Positions 25,323 to 39,697 of a stretch of 64,000 bases of DNA are shown piece after piece (the first letter of the stretch is position 1; every line of letters starts with the position of its first letter). Made by a program: the position numbers and the translations under genes. This DNA comes from Pseudomonadales bacterium (GTDB lineage Bacteria > Pseudomonadota > Gammaproteobacteria > Pseudomonadales > Azotimanducaceae), in contig JAJECH010000042.1 in assembly GCA_022822135.1 (NCBI GenBank), positions 1 to 64,000 on the forward strand, read 5' to 3'. Below the pieces are notes generated by a model. The model was not told the DNA's origin and did not search any database. It saw nothing but the letters and a program-made list of their open reading frames with translations.

Positions 25323-26345
25323 TCAGCTACCTAGTCGATTTCGAGGCGTCTGCCAACGTAACGGTTTTGCGTGAAGCTCGACGTCATTCACGACGTCGAA
25401 GATCAACGTAAACAATGCCATGCGGATGAGCACACCGTTCTGCGTTTGGCGAAAGATGGCAAGGTTCGGGTTCGAATCCAGGTCTTCGTCTAGCTCCTGA
25501 CTTTGCGCACGCGAGTCGCGCGGTAGTGGATGCATGATCACCGTGTTCGATTCGCAATACTGCGAATAGATTTCCTGGTTCAAGCGGAACAGGCCGCGAT
25601 AGTAATCGGCTTCTTCCTGTGTTGGGAAACGTTCTTCCTGAACCCGCGTGACATAAAGGATGTCGACGTGCTGGATACCTTCGCGAAGGTCGTGAAATTC
25701 CGAAACTGATGCACCGCCTTGACGAAGTAACTCGATTAATTCGGGTGGGGCGTCCAAACCTTCAGGCGACGCCAATTGCACCGTTACCTTCTTAAAGAGG
25801 GTCAAGAGCTTTAACAGTGAATGTACGGCTCTTCCGTTGGCTAAGTCACCAATCAATGCGATGCGGAAGTCGTCGACGCTCTTGTTTTGGGATTCAAGTT
25901 CCTTACGGATGGTGTAGAGATCCAGTAACGCTTGTGACGGATGTTCGTTCGCCCCGTCGCCGCCGTTAATGACAGGAACTAGAGACGCCGACGCAAATTC
26001 TTCGGCCGAGCCAGTTTCCGGGTGGCGTATCACGATGATGTCGCTGTAACCAGAAAGGACCCGCGCGAAATCACGCATGGACTCACCTTTTACGATCGAC
26101 GAGGACTCGATACCGGTGGTTTCTCGAACGTTTCCGCCAAGGAGGTTAAACGCGCTTCCAAACGAAACACGCGTGCGCGTGCTAGGTTCGAAAAACATGT
26201 TGGAAAGGATGGCGCCTTCGAGCACCCGGGTGATACGTTCACGACCTGCGAACGGTCGCATACGATCGGCGACTTTGAAGATTTCCTCGACGTCGGCGCG
26301 TTCGAACTGTTGCACCGAAAGGATGTGGTCGCCGTGAAAGTTCAG
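25323..26345 (-). CDS. pyrB: Aspartate carbamoyltransferase catalytic chain
   Basis: Carbamoyl-phosphate motif FFEPSTRTRVSFGSAF, then GESMRDFARVLSGYSD, NGGDGANEHPSQALLDL, the aspartate-side GDLANGRAVHSLL and MHPLPRD. Known role: second step of pyrimidine synthesis. The frame has no ATG at its front. By family resemblance the protein should begin (M)NFHGDHILSV, which puts a CTG at 26345; a GTG at 26315 would cut off 10 conserved residues. Length about 340 residues from the CTG. No pyrI regulatory gene is adjacent. A decayed copy of its first about 75 codons and leader lies at 31309-31627. Convergent with etfA. Confidence 0.93.
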   Translation of the reverse strand: MNFHGDHILSVQQFERADVEEIFKVADRMRPFAGRERITRVLEGAILSNMFFEPSTRTRVSFGSAFNLLGGNVRETTGIESSSIVKGESMRDFARVLSGYSDIIVIRHPETGSAEEFASASLVPVINGGDGANEHPSQALLDLYTIRKELESQNKSVDDFRIALIGDLANGRAVHSLLKLLTLFKKVTVQLASPEGLDAPPELIELLRQGGASVSEFHDLREGIQHVDILYVTRVQEERFPTQEEADYYRGLFRLNQEIYSQYCESNTVIMHPLPRDSRAQSQELDEDLDSNPNLAIFRQTQNGVLIRMALFTLIFDVVNDVELHAKPLRWQTPRNRLGS

Positions 26346-26373
26346 ATTTGTACCAGAGGCTAGACGCGTTGAA

Positions 26374-28272: not shown

Positions 28273-29676
28273 GTGTTCATCAAGTACGTTCGGATAGCCA
28301 TGACTCTGTTGTGGCTCACGTGTGCCATCGGTTGTGCCGTTAATCCAGTTACAGGCCAACGAGAGCTGTCGTTGTACTCGACGGCAACCGAAATCGACAT
28401 GGGTCGGAGTCATTACGTTCCACTTCAGCAGATTAGTGGCGGTGCGTACGTAACGGATCAAGGCATTGCGAAGTACGTCTCGGTGGTTGGTCAGCGAGTC
28501 GCTGGTTACAGTGATCGGGTGTTACCCTATGAATTCGTAGTCCTGAACAACAGTACGCCGAATGCATGGGCGCTCCCAGGCGGAAAAATCGCGATCAATC
28601 GAGGATTGCTTGTCGAGCTCGAAAATGAAGCAGAACTTGCGGCGATTCTTGGACATGAAATCGTTCACGCCGCTGCAAAACACAGTGTAAACGAACGCCA
28701 ACGGGAGCTTCTACTCGGCTTAACCGGACTCGGGGTGGCGTACGCCGTCAAAGACGAGAAACGTGCCCGCGAGATAGTTGCTGCGACCGATATTGGATTA
28801 GGTCTTGCTAGTATGAAGTTCGACCGGGATCAGGAGCGTCTTGCGGACTATCACGGAATGAAGTACATGCACTCAGCGGGTTATGACACTGCTGCAGCGG
28901 TCACATTGCAGGAGAAATTCGTGGCGATGGGTGCGGGTAATAAGAGTCAATGGTTGGAAGGTCTATTTGCCACTCATCCACCTTCGCCCGAGCGAGTTTC
29001 CAACAACCGCGCTGCGTTAGTGGAGTTCCCGCCAGGCGGAGATTTAGGCGCGGCTCATTTTCGTGCACAAATGCGCACGCTGATGGACGATCGTAAGGCA
29101 TATGACCTTGCGGACCAGGCACGGGCAAGCGACGATATGGATCAATCGTTGGTGTTGATTGATCAAGCCATCGCACAACAACCTCGCGAGTCTCAGTTTC
29201 ATGGCATACGTGGAGACATTCTCGCGAGTCAAGGAAAACATCAAGATGCTGTGCAGTCTTACACGGTCGCGACCGTTCTTAATAGCGGTTATTTCGCACC
29301 TTTTCTAGGTCGAGCCATGTCGTTCGATGTATTGGGGTACGATGATCGCGCTCGAAACGACTTTCGAAGTAGCAATCGGCTACTCCAGACACCATACGCA
29401 AGTTTTAAGCTGGGCTACTACGCGTTAGCTGCGGGTGATCGCGACGAAGCGAAACGCGAGTTTAAGCTAGCAAGCACTGACGACAGTGATCTAGGTAGCG
29501 CAGCGTTAAACGAGCACTTGAAAATTGATATCGAGGATGAGCCTTGGAAATACATCGACGTGGAGACATTCCTCGGGAATGGTGAGATCGTCGTCGAGGT
29601 TACGAATTCAAGTGATTATCCGATAAGAACGATTGTCGCGCACGTAACTGCTCGGGTGACTGCTCCCCTCCCTTAA
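28273..29676 (+). CDS. M48-family metallopeptidase lipoprotein with TPR-like repeats, 3' end replaced by tnpB element
   Basis: 467 residues from a GTG. Lipobox AIGC with Cys21 follows a short signal, so it is probably anchored in the outer membrane facing the periplasm. The zinc site is H128-E129-x2-H132 in ILGHEIVHAAAKH, with the third ligand expected in QERLADYHG. The second half has helical-repeat sequence (KAYDLADQARAS, GDILASQGKHQDAVQSYTVA), as in BepA-like peptidases. The last native codon is about Arg461 (29653-29655). The final six residues and the stop come from the right end of the inserted tnpB element. The original C-terminal tail is therefore lost, but the peptidase domain is intact. 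Confidence 0.85.
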   Translation: MFIKYVRIAMTLLWLTCAIGCAVNPVTGQRELSLYSTATEIDMGRSHYVPLQQISGGAYVTDQGIAKYVSVVGQRVAGYSDRVLPYEFVVLNNSTPNAWALPGGKIAINRGLLVELENEAELAAILGHEIVHAAAKHSVNERQRELLLGLTGLGVAYAVKDEKRAREIVAATDIGLGLASMKFDRDQERLADYHGMKYMHSAGYDTAAAVTLQEKFVAMGAGNKSQWLEGLFATHPPSPERVSNNRAALVEFPPGGDLGAAHFRAQMRTLMDDRKAYDLADQARASDDMDQSLVLIDQAIAQQPRESQFHGIRGDILASQGKHQDAVQSYTVATVLNSGYFAPFLGRAMSFDVLGYDDRARNDFRSSNRLLQTPYASFKLGYYALAAGDRDEAKREFKLASTDDSDLGSAALNEHLKIDIEDEPWKYIDVETFLGNGEIVVEVTNSSDYPIRTIVAHVTARVTAPLP

Positions 29677-30865
29677 GGAAGGGGCTTCCTGCTTCGCTGG
29701 CTACCGCCGGCCATTCGCCGGTCTTACACAAGCCTCCACAGGCAGAGACGGACAGCCCTGCCGCCTTTAATTTCAAAATGCCCTCGGCCTTGATGTTCAA
29801 CGCCGCATTGACATCACGATCGTGCCGATGATGACACGTCGGACACGTCCACGTTCTAACTGACAAAGGCAGTTCTGACACTACTTCGCCGCACGCTGAG
29901 CACTGCTTGCTCGACGGAAACCATGGGTCCACGGACACCACGTGTTTGCCTTGCCAGTTCGCCTTGTACTTGAGCTGTCGCACCAGTTCGCCCCATGCCG
30001 CATCGCTGATCGCCTTGGAAAGGCGTCGGTTCTTCAGCATGTTGGTCACGCGCAAGGTCTCGACACAGATGGCTTGGTTCTCGTCCATCAGTTGTCGTGA
30101 CAGCTTGTGCTGTGCATCATGCCGTTGGTTCGCGATGCGTTCGTGGGCTTTGGCAACGAGGAGACGAGCCTTGTTGCGATTGGTGGAGCCTCGCTGTTTC
30201 CGCGACAACGCCTTCTGCTTGCGCCGGAGGTTGCGTATGCCTTGGTTCAGGCAACGTGGGTTCGGTGCCTTGACACCCTCACTCGTGATCGCCAGGTGCG
30301 TCAGTCCCAGATCAACGCCCACCACTTGATCCCCATCGACGTGACGATCTGGTTGAGGTAGTTCCTTGCCATCATCGCACAGGATGGACGCGTAATACTT
30401 GCCGCTCGGACTGCGACTTACGGTCACGGTCTTGATCCTGCCCACCAACTCGCGGTGCAGCACGGCTTTGACCCGACCGACCTTCGGCAGATACAGACGG
30501 TTGCCGTCCACCACGTTCACGCGTTGCGGGTAGGCCATGGATTGCTTGCCAGATCTTCGCTTGAAACGCGGGTACCGGGCTTGCTTGTTGAAAAATCGGG
30601 AGAAGGCATGGTCGAGATGACGCATGGCTTGCTGCAACGCTTGACTGTCCGCGTCTCTCAACCATGCGGTTTCAGGTTGACGCTTGAGCGTGACCAGTTG
30701 ATCGAGTGTCATGCGCAACGTGACGTTTTCCTGGCGTTCTCGCCAAGCCGTGCAACGCCACTCCAATGCGTGGTTGTAGACCCAGCGGACCGCGCCGAAC
30801 TGACACGCCAATGCGTGCTGTTGCGCCGATGTTGGGTAGAGTCGGACTTTCACGGCTTTGAACAT
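29600..30865 (-). CDS. tnpB: TnpB, RNA-guided nuclease of an IS200/IS605-type element
   Basis: 421 residues. N-terminal helix-turn-helix-like domain starting MFKAVKVRLYPTSAQQ. RuvC-type catalytic residues are D185 (VVGVDLGLTH), E269 (AICVETLRV) and D351 (RHDRDVNAALNI). The zinc ribbon is C322-x2-C325 and C341-x2-C344. All active-site residues are intact, so the nuclease may be functional. No tnpA transposase is adjacent, making this an IS1341-like solo element. The frame crosses the element's right end and takes its last 18 or so residues from host DNA, overlapping the 3' end of the M48 gene on the other strand. Confidence 0.92.
   Translation of the reverse strand: MFKAVKVRLYPTSAQQHALACQFGAVRWVYNHALEWRCTAWRERQENVTLRMTLDQLVTLKRQPETAWLRDADSQALQQAMRHLDHAFSRFFNKQARYPRFKRRSGKQSMAYPQRVNVVDGNRLYLPKVGRVKAVLHRELVGRIKTVTVSRSPSGKYYASILCDDGKELPQPDRHVDGDQVVGVDLGLTHLAITSEGVKAPNPRCLNQGIRNLRRKQKALSRKQRGSTNRNKARLLVAKAHERIANQRHDAQHKLSRQLMDENQAICVETLRVTNMLKNRRLSKAISDAAWGELVRQLKYKANWQGKHVVSVDPWFPSSKQCSACGEVVSELPLSVRTWTCPTCHHRHDRDVNAALNIKAEGILKLKAAGLSVSACGGLCKTGEWPAVASEAGSPFLKGGEQSPEQLRARQSFLSDNHLNS
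29636..29790 (-). ncRNA. Probable omega/reRNA of the tnpB element, with guide
   Basis: TnpB-associated guide RNAs overlap the 3' end of tnpB and end in a hairpin beside the element's right end, followed by a guide copied from flanking DNA. Here the minus strand carries the hairpin CCCCTTCC-TTAA-GGGAGGGG (29665-29684), then AGCAGTCAC (29656-29664). After that comes host M48 sequence beginning CCGAGCAGTTACGTGCGCG, which would be the guide. The 5' limit is a guess. The call rests on the position, the hairpin and known IS605/IS1341 architecture. Confidence 0.55.
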
Positions 30866-31308: not shown

Positions 31309-31627
31309 TCTTTCACGATCGACGAGGACTCGATACCTCTGGATTCTCGGTCGTTTCCTCCAAGTAGGTTAAACGCACTTCCGAACGACACACGAGAGCG
31401 TGTGCTAGGTTCTTAAAGCATGTGTGAAAGGATGGCGCTTTCGAGCACGCGCGTGATGCGTTTACGATCTGCGAACGATCGCATACGACCGGCGACTTAG
31501 AAGACTTTCTCGACGTCGGTGCGTTCAATCTGTTGAACCGAAAGGCTGTGATCGCCGTGAAAGTTCAGATTTGTACCAGAGCTAGACGTGTTGAACGAAG
31601 CCATATTTCGCGTAGACGTGCGTTTTA
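31309..31627 (-). pseudogene. Decayed duplicate of the pyrB 5' end and leader
   Basis: Aligns with 26086-26407 with few single-base indels and about 15% substitutions by eye. Shared runs include GTTCAGATTTGTACCAGA and GCGAACG/GCATACG blocks. On the minus strand it covers the pyrB leader and roughly codons 1-75, ending after the motif SSSIVK; the rest of pyrB is absent. The frame is interrupted (for example TTCTTAAAG in place of the TTCGAAAAA stretch). It lies downstream of HEPN-like copy 2, just as pyrB lies downstream of copy 1. Confidence 0.9.
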
Positions 31628-33871: not shown

Positions 33872-34252
33872 ATGTCCACTAAAAAAATCTTCGTCAGCTT
33901 CGACTACGACCACGATAATGAATTGCGGTGCGGCTTTATGTCTGAAGCGAAAAAACACTCGAAGCACAAGATCAAGGATTATTCGCTCAAAGGCGCTGTG
34001 GACGCAAATTGGAAGAAAAAGGCTCGGTCTCTTATCGGAGAAACAGATTTTGTCATTTTCCTCTGTGGTGTTAACACGCATGCAGCGCCGGGCGTAGCAG
34101 CGGAAATGACCATTACTCATCAATTAGGCAAACCATACATCCTCCTAAAAGGACGACGTAAAAGTAAATGCTCGAAGCCTCTAGGAGCGAAAGCCTCAGA
34201 CGAGATCCAATCGCGGAAGTGGAAGCACGTCAACGCACTGCTTGACAGGTAG
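33872..34252 (+). CDS. TIR-like domain protein (ThsB/DUF1863 type)
   Basis: 126 residues, ATG with AAGGAA 7-8 bases upstream. It begins KKIFVSFDYDHDNELR, the first TIR strand-loop, then has IKDYSLKG, KKARSLIGETDFVIFLCG and a GVAAEMTITHQLGKPYILL segment with the Glu expected to be catalytic. This order matches the short TIR proteins related to ThsB of Thoeris defence, which make a signalling nucleotide from NAD+. It has no other domain, and no ThsA-like SIR2 or macro partner is adjacent. The role as a defence sensor is inferred. Confidence 0.75.
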   Translation: MSTKKIFVSFDYDHDNELRCGFMSEAKKHSKHKIKDYSLKGAVDANWKKKARSLIGETDFVIFLCGVNTHAAPGVAAEMTITHQLGKPYILLKGRRKSKCSKPLGAKASDEIQSRKWKHVNALLDR

Positions 34253-37587: not shown

Positions 37588-37815
37588 ATTCTTTAAATTG
37601 AGCACCGTTCCTAATCGATATTCGTCTAATCGATAAATACGTGGTGGATTAAAGAGATTGCGCTAAATCCTTCTGCTCGTTCGTATTTTCTGTTCGAAAT
37701 CTCAATTACTCAAAGCACCGTGAAAGGTGTCGATGCAGACTTAGAGAAGCAAGTTCCATTGAGTGATAGACAAGAGATTAATGATTTCGGAGAAATTCAT
37801 TAAATTGAATTCGCT
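37588..37815. other. Convergent intergenic region after the subtilase
   Basis: About 230 bp, AT-rich, between the subtilase stop and the broken membrane-protein frame that ends at 37816. No clear hairpin. Confidence 0.35.
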
Positions 37816-37974
37816 CTATATGATCGGGTTTATCGCTAGTACAACAGAAAAAAACGCCAGGGCCAAACCAACTATAAAGAAAGTAAGCACAACGATATTT
37901 ATTGATCGCTCAAGTGTTGCGATGTAATAGGATTTCCAAATGTCTTGCTCTTCGTTTAAGAACCGCGTGTTGAG
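37816..37974 (-). pseudogene. In-frame continuation of the TIR-linked membrane protein beyond a TAA
   Basis: After the TAA at 37975-37977 the same frame stays open for 52 further codons. They encode a charged linker (LNTRFLNEEQDIWKSYYIA) and a strong hydrophobic helix (IVVLTFFIVGLALAFFSVV), ending at a TAG at 37816. There is no start codon that would make it a separate gene. As I recall them, related TIR-linked membrane proteins are about 150 residues long and end in just such a third helix. This looks like the lost C-terminus of the 94-residue protein. Confidence 0.65.
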
Positions 37975-38259
37975 TTATAATTCGTTCTCCATCCGAAGCA
38001 AGAGTTCGTTTTTAGCTTTCAATTTAGCTCGCAGAGATTTGAGAGAATAGTTCCATCCGATTGAAACAATACTCACTGTAGCAAAAAGAACAGCTGATGC
38101 CCACGAAAAACCATGTATGAAACCAATAGTAATCGATGCGGCCATGATCGCTACACAGAGGGTTCCGTATAGCCGGGTGGTCATATCACGTCGTTCGTCG
38201 ATTTTATCCGCTGATTGGACTTGCAGTTGGTAGATTTGAAAATCGCGTGTATCGGACAC
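37975..38259 (-). CDS. Small membrane protein paired with a TIR protein (truncated by TAA)
   Basis: 94 residues. N-terminal polar helix RDFQIYQLQVQSADKIDERR, then two transmembrane helices (about 33-50 and 53-68), then a basic coiled tail ending MENEL at a TAA. The N-terminal phrase is typical of small membrane proteins encoded beside DUF1863-type TIR genes and recalls SLATT-like two-helix effectors. It lies 18 bases downstream of the TIR gene, so it is clearly one operon. The frame continues past the TAA with a third helix (37816-37974), so this copy may be a nonsense-truncated allele. Inferred role: membrane effector of a TIR-signalling defence pair. Confidence 0.7.
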   Translation of the reverse strand: MSDTRDFQIYQLQVQSADKIDERRDMTTRLYGTLCVAIMAASITIGFIHGFSWASAVLFATVSIVSIGWNYSLKSLRAKLKAKNELLLRMENEL

Positions 38260-38277
38260 GACTATATTCCTTATTCT

Positions 38278-38898
38278 CTAAGAATGCGTACGGTTTCGCC
38301 TTCGTAACCGTTGACTCGTGTCGTACTTGCACTTCTTCCTGTCCCTATATGCTAGTTCTACTAATGTACGTAGCTCATTAGGAGATGTCGCCAGTTTCCA
38401 TGGCACCACTGATATGTAAACGTTCGGTTTCACGAGATTGTCAAGAATTCGATCGGGCATGTGTTCGTACTTCCTCCTAATTTCTTTGGGATTGTCTATC
38501 ACGAGCGACGACCGAATATTCGAGTGAATCTGCTTTCTTTCCTCTTCGCCGTGCGGTGTCATGACGAATTTGCCATTCGGGGTCCCTGGTAGGTTTATTA
38601 CGAGGATTCCTGACCTTTTATTCTGTACACTATCGTACATACTAGCATGTATCTCCCAATCAACGTGCTTACGGTACTTTGTCTGAAGTCCAGCGAGTAC
38701 GATAGTTACGATTGATTTACGTAGGTACTCATCGCGGATTGTATTTCTTATTTGTTCGTCAGTTAGCCTATCGCTAATATCCCCCGTATCGACAGATCCA
38801 TCTACAAAAACACCATTGTTCTCTCCGATACTAATGAGCTCATCCTTGTAGGCTTGATCTTGTTTATGATGGTATGTAATGAAGACTCTAGGTGGCAT
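38278..38898 (-). CDS. TIR-domain protein (DUF1863/ThsB-like) of a TIR-membrane protein pair
   Basis: 206 residues from the ATG at 38898, which has a GGGAG site just upstream; an earlier in-frame start at 38952 lacks one. It begins MPPRVFITYHHKQDQAYKD, has VFVDGSVDTGDISDRL, then IVTIVLAGLQTKYRKHVDWEI, with E82 the expected catalytic Glu. The C-terminal 90 residues are basic and less conserved in appearance. TIR proteins of this family make or cleave NAD-derived signals in Thoeris-like and related defence systems. The partner membrane gene follows after 18 bases. Confidence 0.82.
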   Translation of the reverse strand: MPPRVFITYHHKQDQAYKDELISIGENNGVFVDGSVDTGDISDRLTDEQIRNTIRDEYLRKSIVTIVLAGLQTKYRKHVDWEIHASMYDSVQNKRSGILVINLPGTPNGKFVMTPHGEEERKQIHSNIRSSLVIDNPKEIRRKYEHMPDRILDNLVKPNVYISVVPWKLATSPNELRTLVELAYRDRKKCKYDTSQRLRRRNRTHS

Positions 38899-39379
38899 GA
38901 GACTCCCTACTTCGGATCGGGTTTTGTTTGAACTATCTGAGCAAATATGCAAAAAGTAACCGATAGATGAATGACTTTATCGTACAGTGCTCGGAATAGC
39001 CTATATTGAATGTTCAATAGGATAAATTCGATTGATCGACTTCGTCGGACTTCGATCTTGACATCATTAAACACTCTCTGATTCAGTTTGTTCGACCGAA
39101 AAATCGAGAAGAAGTTCGCTAGTGCGCGTACTTAGCGTAAGACGTTTCTACCGTAGATGGATATCGATTTGAGGCGATCCATATTTAGCAAGATTGCGAG
39201 ATCTAGACGTGTGCCAATTGCTAAGTAATCGAGATCGAGTCCGCTTGCTTAGAAGTCTACTTAGGAGCGATTTGATCAAAAAACTATTAGAACGCCACAC
39301 CCATCAGATTGTGTTGCGGAGCGCTGTATCGAAGCGTAGAGTTCGATGTCTAAGCGAAATAGTCTGCAATCACGAGATG
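38899..39379. other. Upstream region of the TIR unit
   Basis: About 480 bp of AT-rich DNA between the TIR gene and the HTH gene, both minus strand. It contains the inverted repeat at 39004-39019. No gene was recognised. Confidence 0.4.
39004..39019. promoter_or_regulatory. Operator-like inverted repeat upstream of the TIR gene
   Basis: TATTGAA-TG-TTCAATA, a perfect 7-bp repeat with a 2-base spacer, about 105 bases upstream of the TIR start. It is a plausible operator for the HTH regulator encoded just upstream. The sequence is short, so chance cannot be excluded. Confidence 0.4.
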
Positions 39380-39697
39380 TCAAGCGATCGAACTGATTCC
39401 ATTTTTTTTAACAAGCGTCAACAGCTTCAATGAAGCTCCGCGTGGCCGCTTCTCGCCCCGCTCCCATTGACTCACTAGTCCTGGAGTCACATTGAGATAG
39501 CGAGCGAACACGGCTTGGCTCGCATTTTCACGGATACGCAGATAACGAATGTTCGCGGCCGACATCTCTTGAACAGGTGTCAAGCACGTTTCGTCAAAAA
39601 ACCGCATGGTTTGTTTCGACAGCAGTCCAGCCTCTGCGAGACCTGTTGCTGCTTCGTGCGCCGCCGCCAGTGGTTCACTCTTGTACTGCTTAATCAT
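39380..39697 (-). CDS. XRE-family regulator, NadS/HigA-like orphan antitoxin
   Basis: 105 residues. The C-terminal helix-turn-helix reads SQAVFARYLNVTPGLVSQW followed by ERGEKRPRG, the pattern of HigA/NadS-type antitoxins. An N-terminal segment, AAAHEAATGLAEAG, is also typical of NadS-like proteins. Such genes normally follow a RelE/HigB toxin. The 150 bp upstream on the minus strand holds only broken frames, so no toxin was found. It may now regulate the downstream TIR unit. Confidence 0.78.
   Translation of the reverse strand: MIKQYKSEPLAAAHEAATGLAEAGLLSKQTMRFFDETCLTPVQEMSAANIRYLRIRENASQAVFARYLNVTPGLVSQWERGEKRPRGASLKLLTLVKKNGISSIA

What the first reader, a model, noticed from the sequence alone, without database searches (positions are those of the whole stretch)
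37816..38898. TIR plus small-membrane-protein pair, with the membrane gene cut by one in-frame TAA
Seen: a DUF1863-type TIR gene and a membrane-protein gene 18 bases downstream. After the TAA at 37975-37977 the same frame stays open for 52 codons, and these encode a charged linker and a third strong transmembrane helix, with no new start codon. Known: short TIR proteins signal through NAD-derived molecules, and small membrane proteins (SLATT-like and others) serve as effectors. Inference: this is a TIR-membrane defence pair whose effector was full-length (147 residues) until a recent nonsense mutation, or which is made in two forms by stop-codon readthrough. Loss of an abortive effector while keeping the sensor would be notable.
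Basis: partly seen in the sequence, partly recalled or inferred. Interest (0 to 1): 0.72.

Follow-up and report, generated by a model that had tools for sequence, protein, structure and literature searches.

The report
TIR–membrane defence pair, membrane gene cut
A bacterium carries a two-gene set that looks like an anti-virus alarm (a TIR enzyme plus a small membrane protein), but the membrane gene has a stop codon in its middle, so the alarm has probably lost its working output.

Summary
A ThsB-type TIR gene (38278-38898, minus strand) is followed after 18 bases by a GTG-started membrane gene that stops at TAA 37975-37977; the frame then stays open for 52 codons to a TAG. The membrane protein gave no SLATT (DUF4231) match. 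It matches Pfam 8xMP (PF24838): 35.4 bits over positions 2-134 of 136 read through, but 28.8, below the cut-off of 30, as encoded. The TAA falls in the loop between predicted helices 2 and 3. TIR genes sit beside 8xMP genes at four other places found here, one in the same genus; all four 8xMPs have a third helix. No above-cut-off 8xMP found ends near the TAA. The residue-level match of the tail is weak and fails a profile shuffle test; reading frame, codon use and helix position support it better. In four genus members the site holds 108-122 bases where this genome has 2,440, so the cassette is probably an acquisition. Best reading: a Thoeris-like TIR plus membrane-effector module whose effector is cut by one nonsense codon, most likely a loss of function. 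I found nothing that favours readthrough. An assembly base error cannot be excluded.

The parts
38278..38898 (-). TIR gene, ThsB family, 206 aa
   Evidence: PF08937 ThsB_TIR, 70.3 bits, cut-off 21.2; F6 and E82 invariant in 16 of 16 aligned sequences
38903..38908 (-). AGGGAG, possible ribosome-binding stretch of the TIR gene
   Evidence: Sequence upstream of ATG; assignment by eye
37975..38259 (-). Membrane gene as encoded (GTG start, 94 aa, two helices, TAA stop included)
   Evidence: 8xMP 28.8 bits, below the cut-off of 30
38268..38272 (-). AAGGA, possible ribosome-binding stretch of the membrane gene
   Evidence: Sequence upstream of GTG; assignment by eye
37975..37977 (-). In-frame TAA between predicted helices 2 and 3 (codon 95)
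   Evidence: model helices 3-49, 53-94, 98-143
37816..37974 (-). Open continuation: 52 codons with charged linker and third helix, then TAG 37816-37818
   Evidence: read through, the protein matches 8xMP 2-134 of 136 at 35.4 bits
37588..40027 (.). 2,440 bases between the aligned protease and gspE blocks; 108-122 bases in four genus members
39380..39697 (-). Helix-turn-helix gene in the same insertion; link to the pair unknown
   Evidence: HTH_3, 30.8 bits

Best explanation
The two genes are a Thoeris-like defence module. The TIR protein is predicted to respond to phage infection and to turn NAD+ into a small nucleotide messenger (inferred from its family and kept active-site residues). The 8xMP-type membrane protein is predicted to assemble in the inner membrane and permeabilise it when that messenger binds (inferred). 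Here one nonsense codon removes the third helix, so the effector is most likely inactive while the TIR gene is intact. The module was probably acquired with a ~2.3-kb insertion between a protease gene and gspE. Shown: gene order, TIR family, the stop and its place, recurrence of TIR beside 8xMP, empty site. Inferred: messenger, membrane action, loss of function, recency.
For: ThsB_TIR 70.3 bits; solved ThsB1 chains found by profile; active-site F6 and E82 kept. 8xMP match above the cut-off only when read through. Four other TIR-8xMP neighbours: G015 same genus, L098, L006 and L155, all with a third helix. L098 and L006 give the two highest pairwise scores to this protein among 27 family rows. 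The same TIR clade has other membrane partners, e.g. a 3-TM family at 8 of 80 loci. Empty site in four genus members. In 34 orthologue alignments covering 12 other window genes, 33 show no stop; the one stop lies where the query extends upstream of the window ORF, so the assembly is not error-rich.
Against: No defence activity was tested. The tail match is weak: with a 26-row profile 259 of 1000 whole and 730 of 1000 half shuffles score as well as the real tail (49 and 444 with one wrong row). hhalign does not gain from the tail. Only 2 of 28 loci fetched by the 8xMP family have a recognised TIR next door, and only 1 of 80 loci fetched by this TIR has an 8xMP. The closest TIR relative (L060, 57%) has no membrane neighbour.
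Confidence: 0.5

Rival explanations
1. The TAA is a base error or minority variant in the assembly; the cells encode a full-length effector.
For: One base can make a stop; the genome is a 63-contig draft; no reads could be seen.
Against: 33 of 34 orthologue alignments over 12 window genes have no stop, and the single stop lies outside the window ORF.
Confidence: 0.15
2. The 94-aa two-helix protein is a working short form, for example a smaller effector or a brake on the system.
For: Good start site; the stop sits exactly in a loop; two-helix SLATT effectors beside TIR genes are proposed in print (PMC9503650, passages).
Against: None of 27 other plausible above-cut-off 8xMP matches ends there; the tail still looks coding.
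Confidence: 0.13
3. The open tail is a chance open frame and never was part of the protein.
For: Weak residue-level match.
Against: 0.36% in a composition-matched simulation; codon use favours this frame; against L098 the tail raises the local score from 97 to 112, reached by 16 of 1000 whole and 47 of 1000 half shuffles. Raised from 0.06 to 0.12 after the profile test was repeated without a wrong row.
Confidence: 0.12
4. Two forms are made by readthrough of the TAA.
For: Frame stays open and coding-like.
Against: No readthrough signal was seen or searched for by a tool; UAA is the least leaky stop in bacteria (recalled, no call); none of the related 8xMPs examined has a stop there.
Confidence: 0.03

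Closest known systems
Thoeris, type II (ThsB TIR plus TM-macro ThsA)
   Same: ThsB-type TIR beside a membrane protein; the TM-macro effector clusters in the membrane (PMC11204291, passages)
   Different: Our membrane protein gave no macro-domain match in Pfam and belongs to 8xMP
TIR plus SLATT pairs (PMC9503650 and PMC7159879, passages)
   Same: TIR with a small membrane protein predicted to act on membrane permeability
   Different: Three-helix 8xMP, no DUF4231/SLATT match
TIR plus two-helix ~235-270-aa protein in Klebsiella, E. coli, Listeria and Lactiplantibacillus plasmids
   Same: TIR of the same clade (29-46% identity) beside a membrane-type protein
   Different: Another partner; convergent in enterobacteria, same strand in the other two. 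Likeness of these partners judged by eye
8xMP, Pfam PF24838
   Same: Match over 2-134 of 136 when read through
   Different: As encoded, cut after profile position 91 and below the cut-off

Membership tests
ThsB_TIR (PF08937) | Pfam match over the domain | tested here: met
   70.3 bits, cut-off 21.2, positions 1-98 of 100
ThsB_TIR (PF08937) | Catalytic glutamate facing a phenylalanine (PMC11312562, passages) | tested here: met
   F6 and E82 invariant in 16 of 16; E82 aligns with the glutamate of ThsB1 chains 9b7d and 6lhy. Equivalence of F6 is inferred from position
Thoeris | A ThsA effector (SIR2-SLOG or TM-macro) | tested here: not met
   The gene beside the TIR matches 8xMP, no SIR2, SLOG or macro match
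Thoeris | TIR makes a nucleotide messenger that switches the effector | not testable with these tools
   Needs biochemistry
8xMP (PF24838) | Pfam match above the cut-off, read through | tested here: met
   35.4 bits, cut-off 30
8xMP (PF24838) | Same, for the protein as encoded | tested here: not met
   28.8 bits, positions 2-91
8xMP (PF24838) | Octameric assembly (the family's name) | not testable with these tools
   Only a single-chain model was made
SLATT / DUF4231 | Pfam match | tested here: not met
   No DUF4231 match at E<=1 for either form

The most novel reading that the evidence does not exclude
TIR plus 8xMP is an undescribed, recurrent branch of TIR signalling in which TIR proteins of several subfamilies switch an oligomeric membrane channel; this strain keeps the sensor but has disarmed the effector by a stop between helices 2 and 3.
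Probability: 0.38. Interest if true: 0.65.

Novelty: new variant of a known kind. Interest (0 to 1): 0.42.

Why it matters
TIR proteins are known to fire NADases, membrane-clustering macro-domain proteins and a protease. A recurring TIR-8xMP pair would give a membrane-protein family for which I found no described role a testable function as a messenger-gated effector. The broken copy would be a natural case of a cell that keeps the sensor after losing the lethal output.

Tried and rejected
SLATT identity: no match. Homology of the 3-TM 'EIYRQRYETFRHLDKLRWQ' neighbours (8 of 80 TIR loci) to 8xMP: hhalign probability 0.4%, not supported; counted as a separate partner. Direct homologues of the read-through protein: none in plasmids, genome contigs or viral contigs; 1 of 368 other genomes in the class sample. 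Fold search of the membrane model: no match at E<=0.001. Open runs after other stops (7 of 44 at 52 codons or more) were dropped as a control because some runs read into the next gene in the same frame. 13 sub-cut-off 8xMP matches (eight of them ending at profile positions 66-108, in open frames of 182-656 aa) were not counted as natural short forms. L014 (32.2 bits), whose match holds a TAA, reads by eye like part of another protein and was dropped from the count of homologues. L158 entered the 27-row profile in a wrong frame; the test was repeated without it and came out weaker; its right frame shows a third hydrophobic stretch. L153 is a fragment. A remnant of the G015 8xMP beside the window's second TIR was looked for and not found. 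Promoter and terminator scan: 2 and 2 sites, against shuffle means of 4.7 and 1.8. Papers on 8xMP with TIR: 0; 'octameric membrane protein' with TIR: 0; 8xMP alone: 4, from other fields by their titles.

Full report
What is there. On the minus strand a 206-aa TIR gene (38898-38278) is followed after 18 bases by a membrane gene that starts at GTG 38259 and stops at TAA 37977-37975 (94 aa). The same frame then runs 52 codons to TAG 37818-37816. Both starts are preceded by a ribosome-binding-like stretch (judged by eye). Its 'no new start codon' is true for ATG only: GTG 124 and TTG 132 lie inside the third helix. The organism was not identified; its genome is a draft of 3.75 Mb in 63 contigs.

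The TIR. It matches ThsB_TIR (PF08937) at 70.3 bits and several PADLOC ThsB models, best E 6.6e-9. Alone it finds no solved chain, but its profile finds the ThsB1 chains 9b7d and 6lhy and one more TIR chain. The AF2 model (pLDDT 87.1) has 9b7d as first Foldseek match (E 1.1e-3, probability 1.00, TM 0.35); none reaches 0.001. F6 and E82 are invariant in 16 of 16 aligned sequences. PMC11312562 (passages) reports that changing F6 and E81 of a staphylococcal ThsB2 disrupts immunity. So the enzyme looks intact; its product is unknown.

The membrane protein. Read through, it matches 8xMP (PF24838) at 35.4 bits over positions 2-134 of 136; as encoded it scores 28.8, below the cut-off of 30, over 2-91. 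It is the only 8xMP match in its own genome. An AF2 model from nine sequences (pLDDT 73.5, moderate) has helices at 3-49, 53-94 and 98-143; the TAA (codon 95) lies in the loop before helix 3. No convincing solved relative was found by sequence or by fold.

Is the tail real? For: of 20,000 composition-matched random sequences 6.9% are open and 0.36% open with a helix in place; codon use favours the frame; a BLASTP alignment to the L098 8xMP runs through the stop to residue 133 (25% identity over 7-133), and against L098 16 of 1000 whole and 47 of 1000 half shuffles of the tail do as well. Against: with a 26-row family profile the tail adds 0.4 bits, and 259 whole and 730 half shuffles of 1000 do as well; the same test with a wrong row included had given 49 and 444. 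Four smaller profile sets gave 22-160 whole and 77-654 half shuffles of 1000. Of seven intact relatives tested in the same way six gave 0 of 500 for both kinds and L098 gave 14 and 43 of 500 (the cut in L150 was set late). Against other single relatives the tail helps with L152 (36 and 120 of 1000), hardly with L006 (457 and 837), and not with G015, L150 or L155. hhalign does not gain from it. I read it as a genuine but divergent C-terminus; the better evidence is layout and coding signal, not residues.

Do homologues end there? Searches (274 genomes, own included; 398, own included) gave 28 other above-cut-off 8xMP matches. One (L014) is probably a different protein. Of the other 27, 26 reach profile position 126 or more. 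L158 stops at 112 in the profile, but its frame goes on through a third hydrophobic stretch. None stops near 91.

Recurrence of the pair. G015, same genus: ThsB_TIR (7e-9), 35 bases, an 8xMP of 175 aa (131.6 bits), then a second TIR that is the orthologue (62%) of the window's own second TIR at 33872-34252. L098 (Aestuariivita sp. MAG by its record title): an 8xMP of 153 aa (40.8 bits), 33 bases, then a TIR 47% identical to ours. L006 (G137): TIR (4.5e-18), then an in-frame ATG of the 8xMP four bases after its stop. L155 (G574): TIR (8.9e-12) and an 8xMP (56.1 bits) whose longest ORF overlaps it. All four 8xMPs have a third hydrophobic helix (for L155 the first helix is weak at the stricter threshold). 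L098 and L006 give the two highest pairwise scores to the read-through protein among the 27 rows compared (the G015 protein, scored, is lower), and G137 was the only other genome it hit in a class sample of 369. But only 2 of 28 loci fetched by the 8xMP family had a recognised TIR in their flanks of up to 1.5 kb, so the link is recurrent, not general. The G015 TIR shows no BLASTP similarity to ours, so different TIR subfamilies are involved.

What else this TIR clade pairs with. Of 80 loci found with the TIR, 77 had a TIR ORF by my rule and 5 of these had no same-strand neighbour within 150 bases. The 114 neighbours cluster as a SLOG/TIR-type group (38 proteins), a 'DKDAAWELYIELLTR' group (24), a 3-TM 'EIYRQRYETFRHLDKLRWQ' group (8), four groups of 2-3, one of them SIR2-like, and 33 singletons (group names are my reading, not scans). 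8xMP occurs once (L098). In plasmids 149 of 72,556 records hold a related TIR, every one below 60% identity. Of six enterobacterial stretches looked at, five (L031, L032, L033, L140, L184; not L030) have a convergent gene of 708-711 bases. The L032 copy starts with two hydrophobic segments, and its likes in L091 and L102 have two predicted helices. This modularity is the best support for calling the window's pair a signal-effector module.

Origin of the locus. In G001, G015, G016 and G017 the aligned protease and gspE blocks are 108-122 bases apart; in the window 2,440. G006 shows no protease orthologue in the stretch read. In 97 genomes of the genus, family and order, own included, only three have a match to the TIR: the window's own and two weak ones at about 4e-4, one of them with stops inside. 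Acquisition by insertion is therefore likely; exact boundaries and mover are unknown.

How it most likely works. In Thoeris, 3'cADPR fires SIR2 effectors, His-ADPR clusters TM-macro effectors with membrane perturbation, and N7-cADPR fires a protease (PMC12847820, passages). SLATT proteins beside TIR genes are predicted to control membrane permeability (PMC9503650, passages). By analogy the TIR would make a messenger on infection and the 8xMP would open or disrupt the membrane. Loss of helix 3 would leave a two-helix hairpin, most likely inactive. None of this was measured.

Membership and novelty. The TIR is a ThsB-family member. The pair is not filed as Thoeris, because no ThsA-type effector is present. 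The membrane protein passes the 8xMP cut-off only when read through. I found no paper on 8xMP with TIR in the held library; other libraries were not searched. I rate it a new variant of a known kind.

Noticed in passing
window 33872-34252 (+): A second, shorter ThsB-like TIR ORF (20.0 bits, just below the cut-off). Its orthologue in G015 (62%) follows a TIR-8xMP pair that is missing here.
   Followed up: partly
window 26087-26358 and 31310-31581: The 5' end of a pyrB-like gene is repeated (87%) on both sides of about 5 kb that holds a TnpB-like ORF (29600-30865), as if an element had inserted with a target duplication (gene names by eye).
   Followed up: partly
L031-L034, L038, L140, L184: Related plasmid TIR genes have a ~235-270-aa partner with two hydrophobic segments, convergent in enterobacteria and on the same strand in Listeria and Lactiplantibacillus (likeness of the partners by eye).
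   Followed up: partly
L073, L086, L096, L109, L111, L113, L116, L119: A 3-TM protein family (EIYRQRYETFRHLDKLRWQ) lies directly upstream of TIR genes at 8 of 80 loci; no Pfam match above a cut-off and no profile match to 8xMP.
   Followed up: partly
L061, L064, L069, L092, L101, L104 and others: A ~172-aa 'DKDAAWELYIELLTR' family is the TIR neighbour in 24 cases; the one scanned (L061) has no Pfam match.
   Followed up: no
window 37613-37628 and 39154-39169: A 16-nt inverted repeat (88%) lies on both sides of the pair; it may be chance.
   Followed up: no
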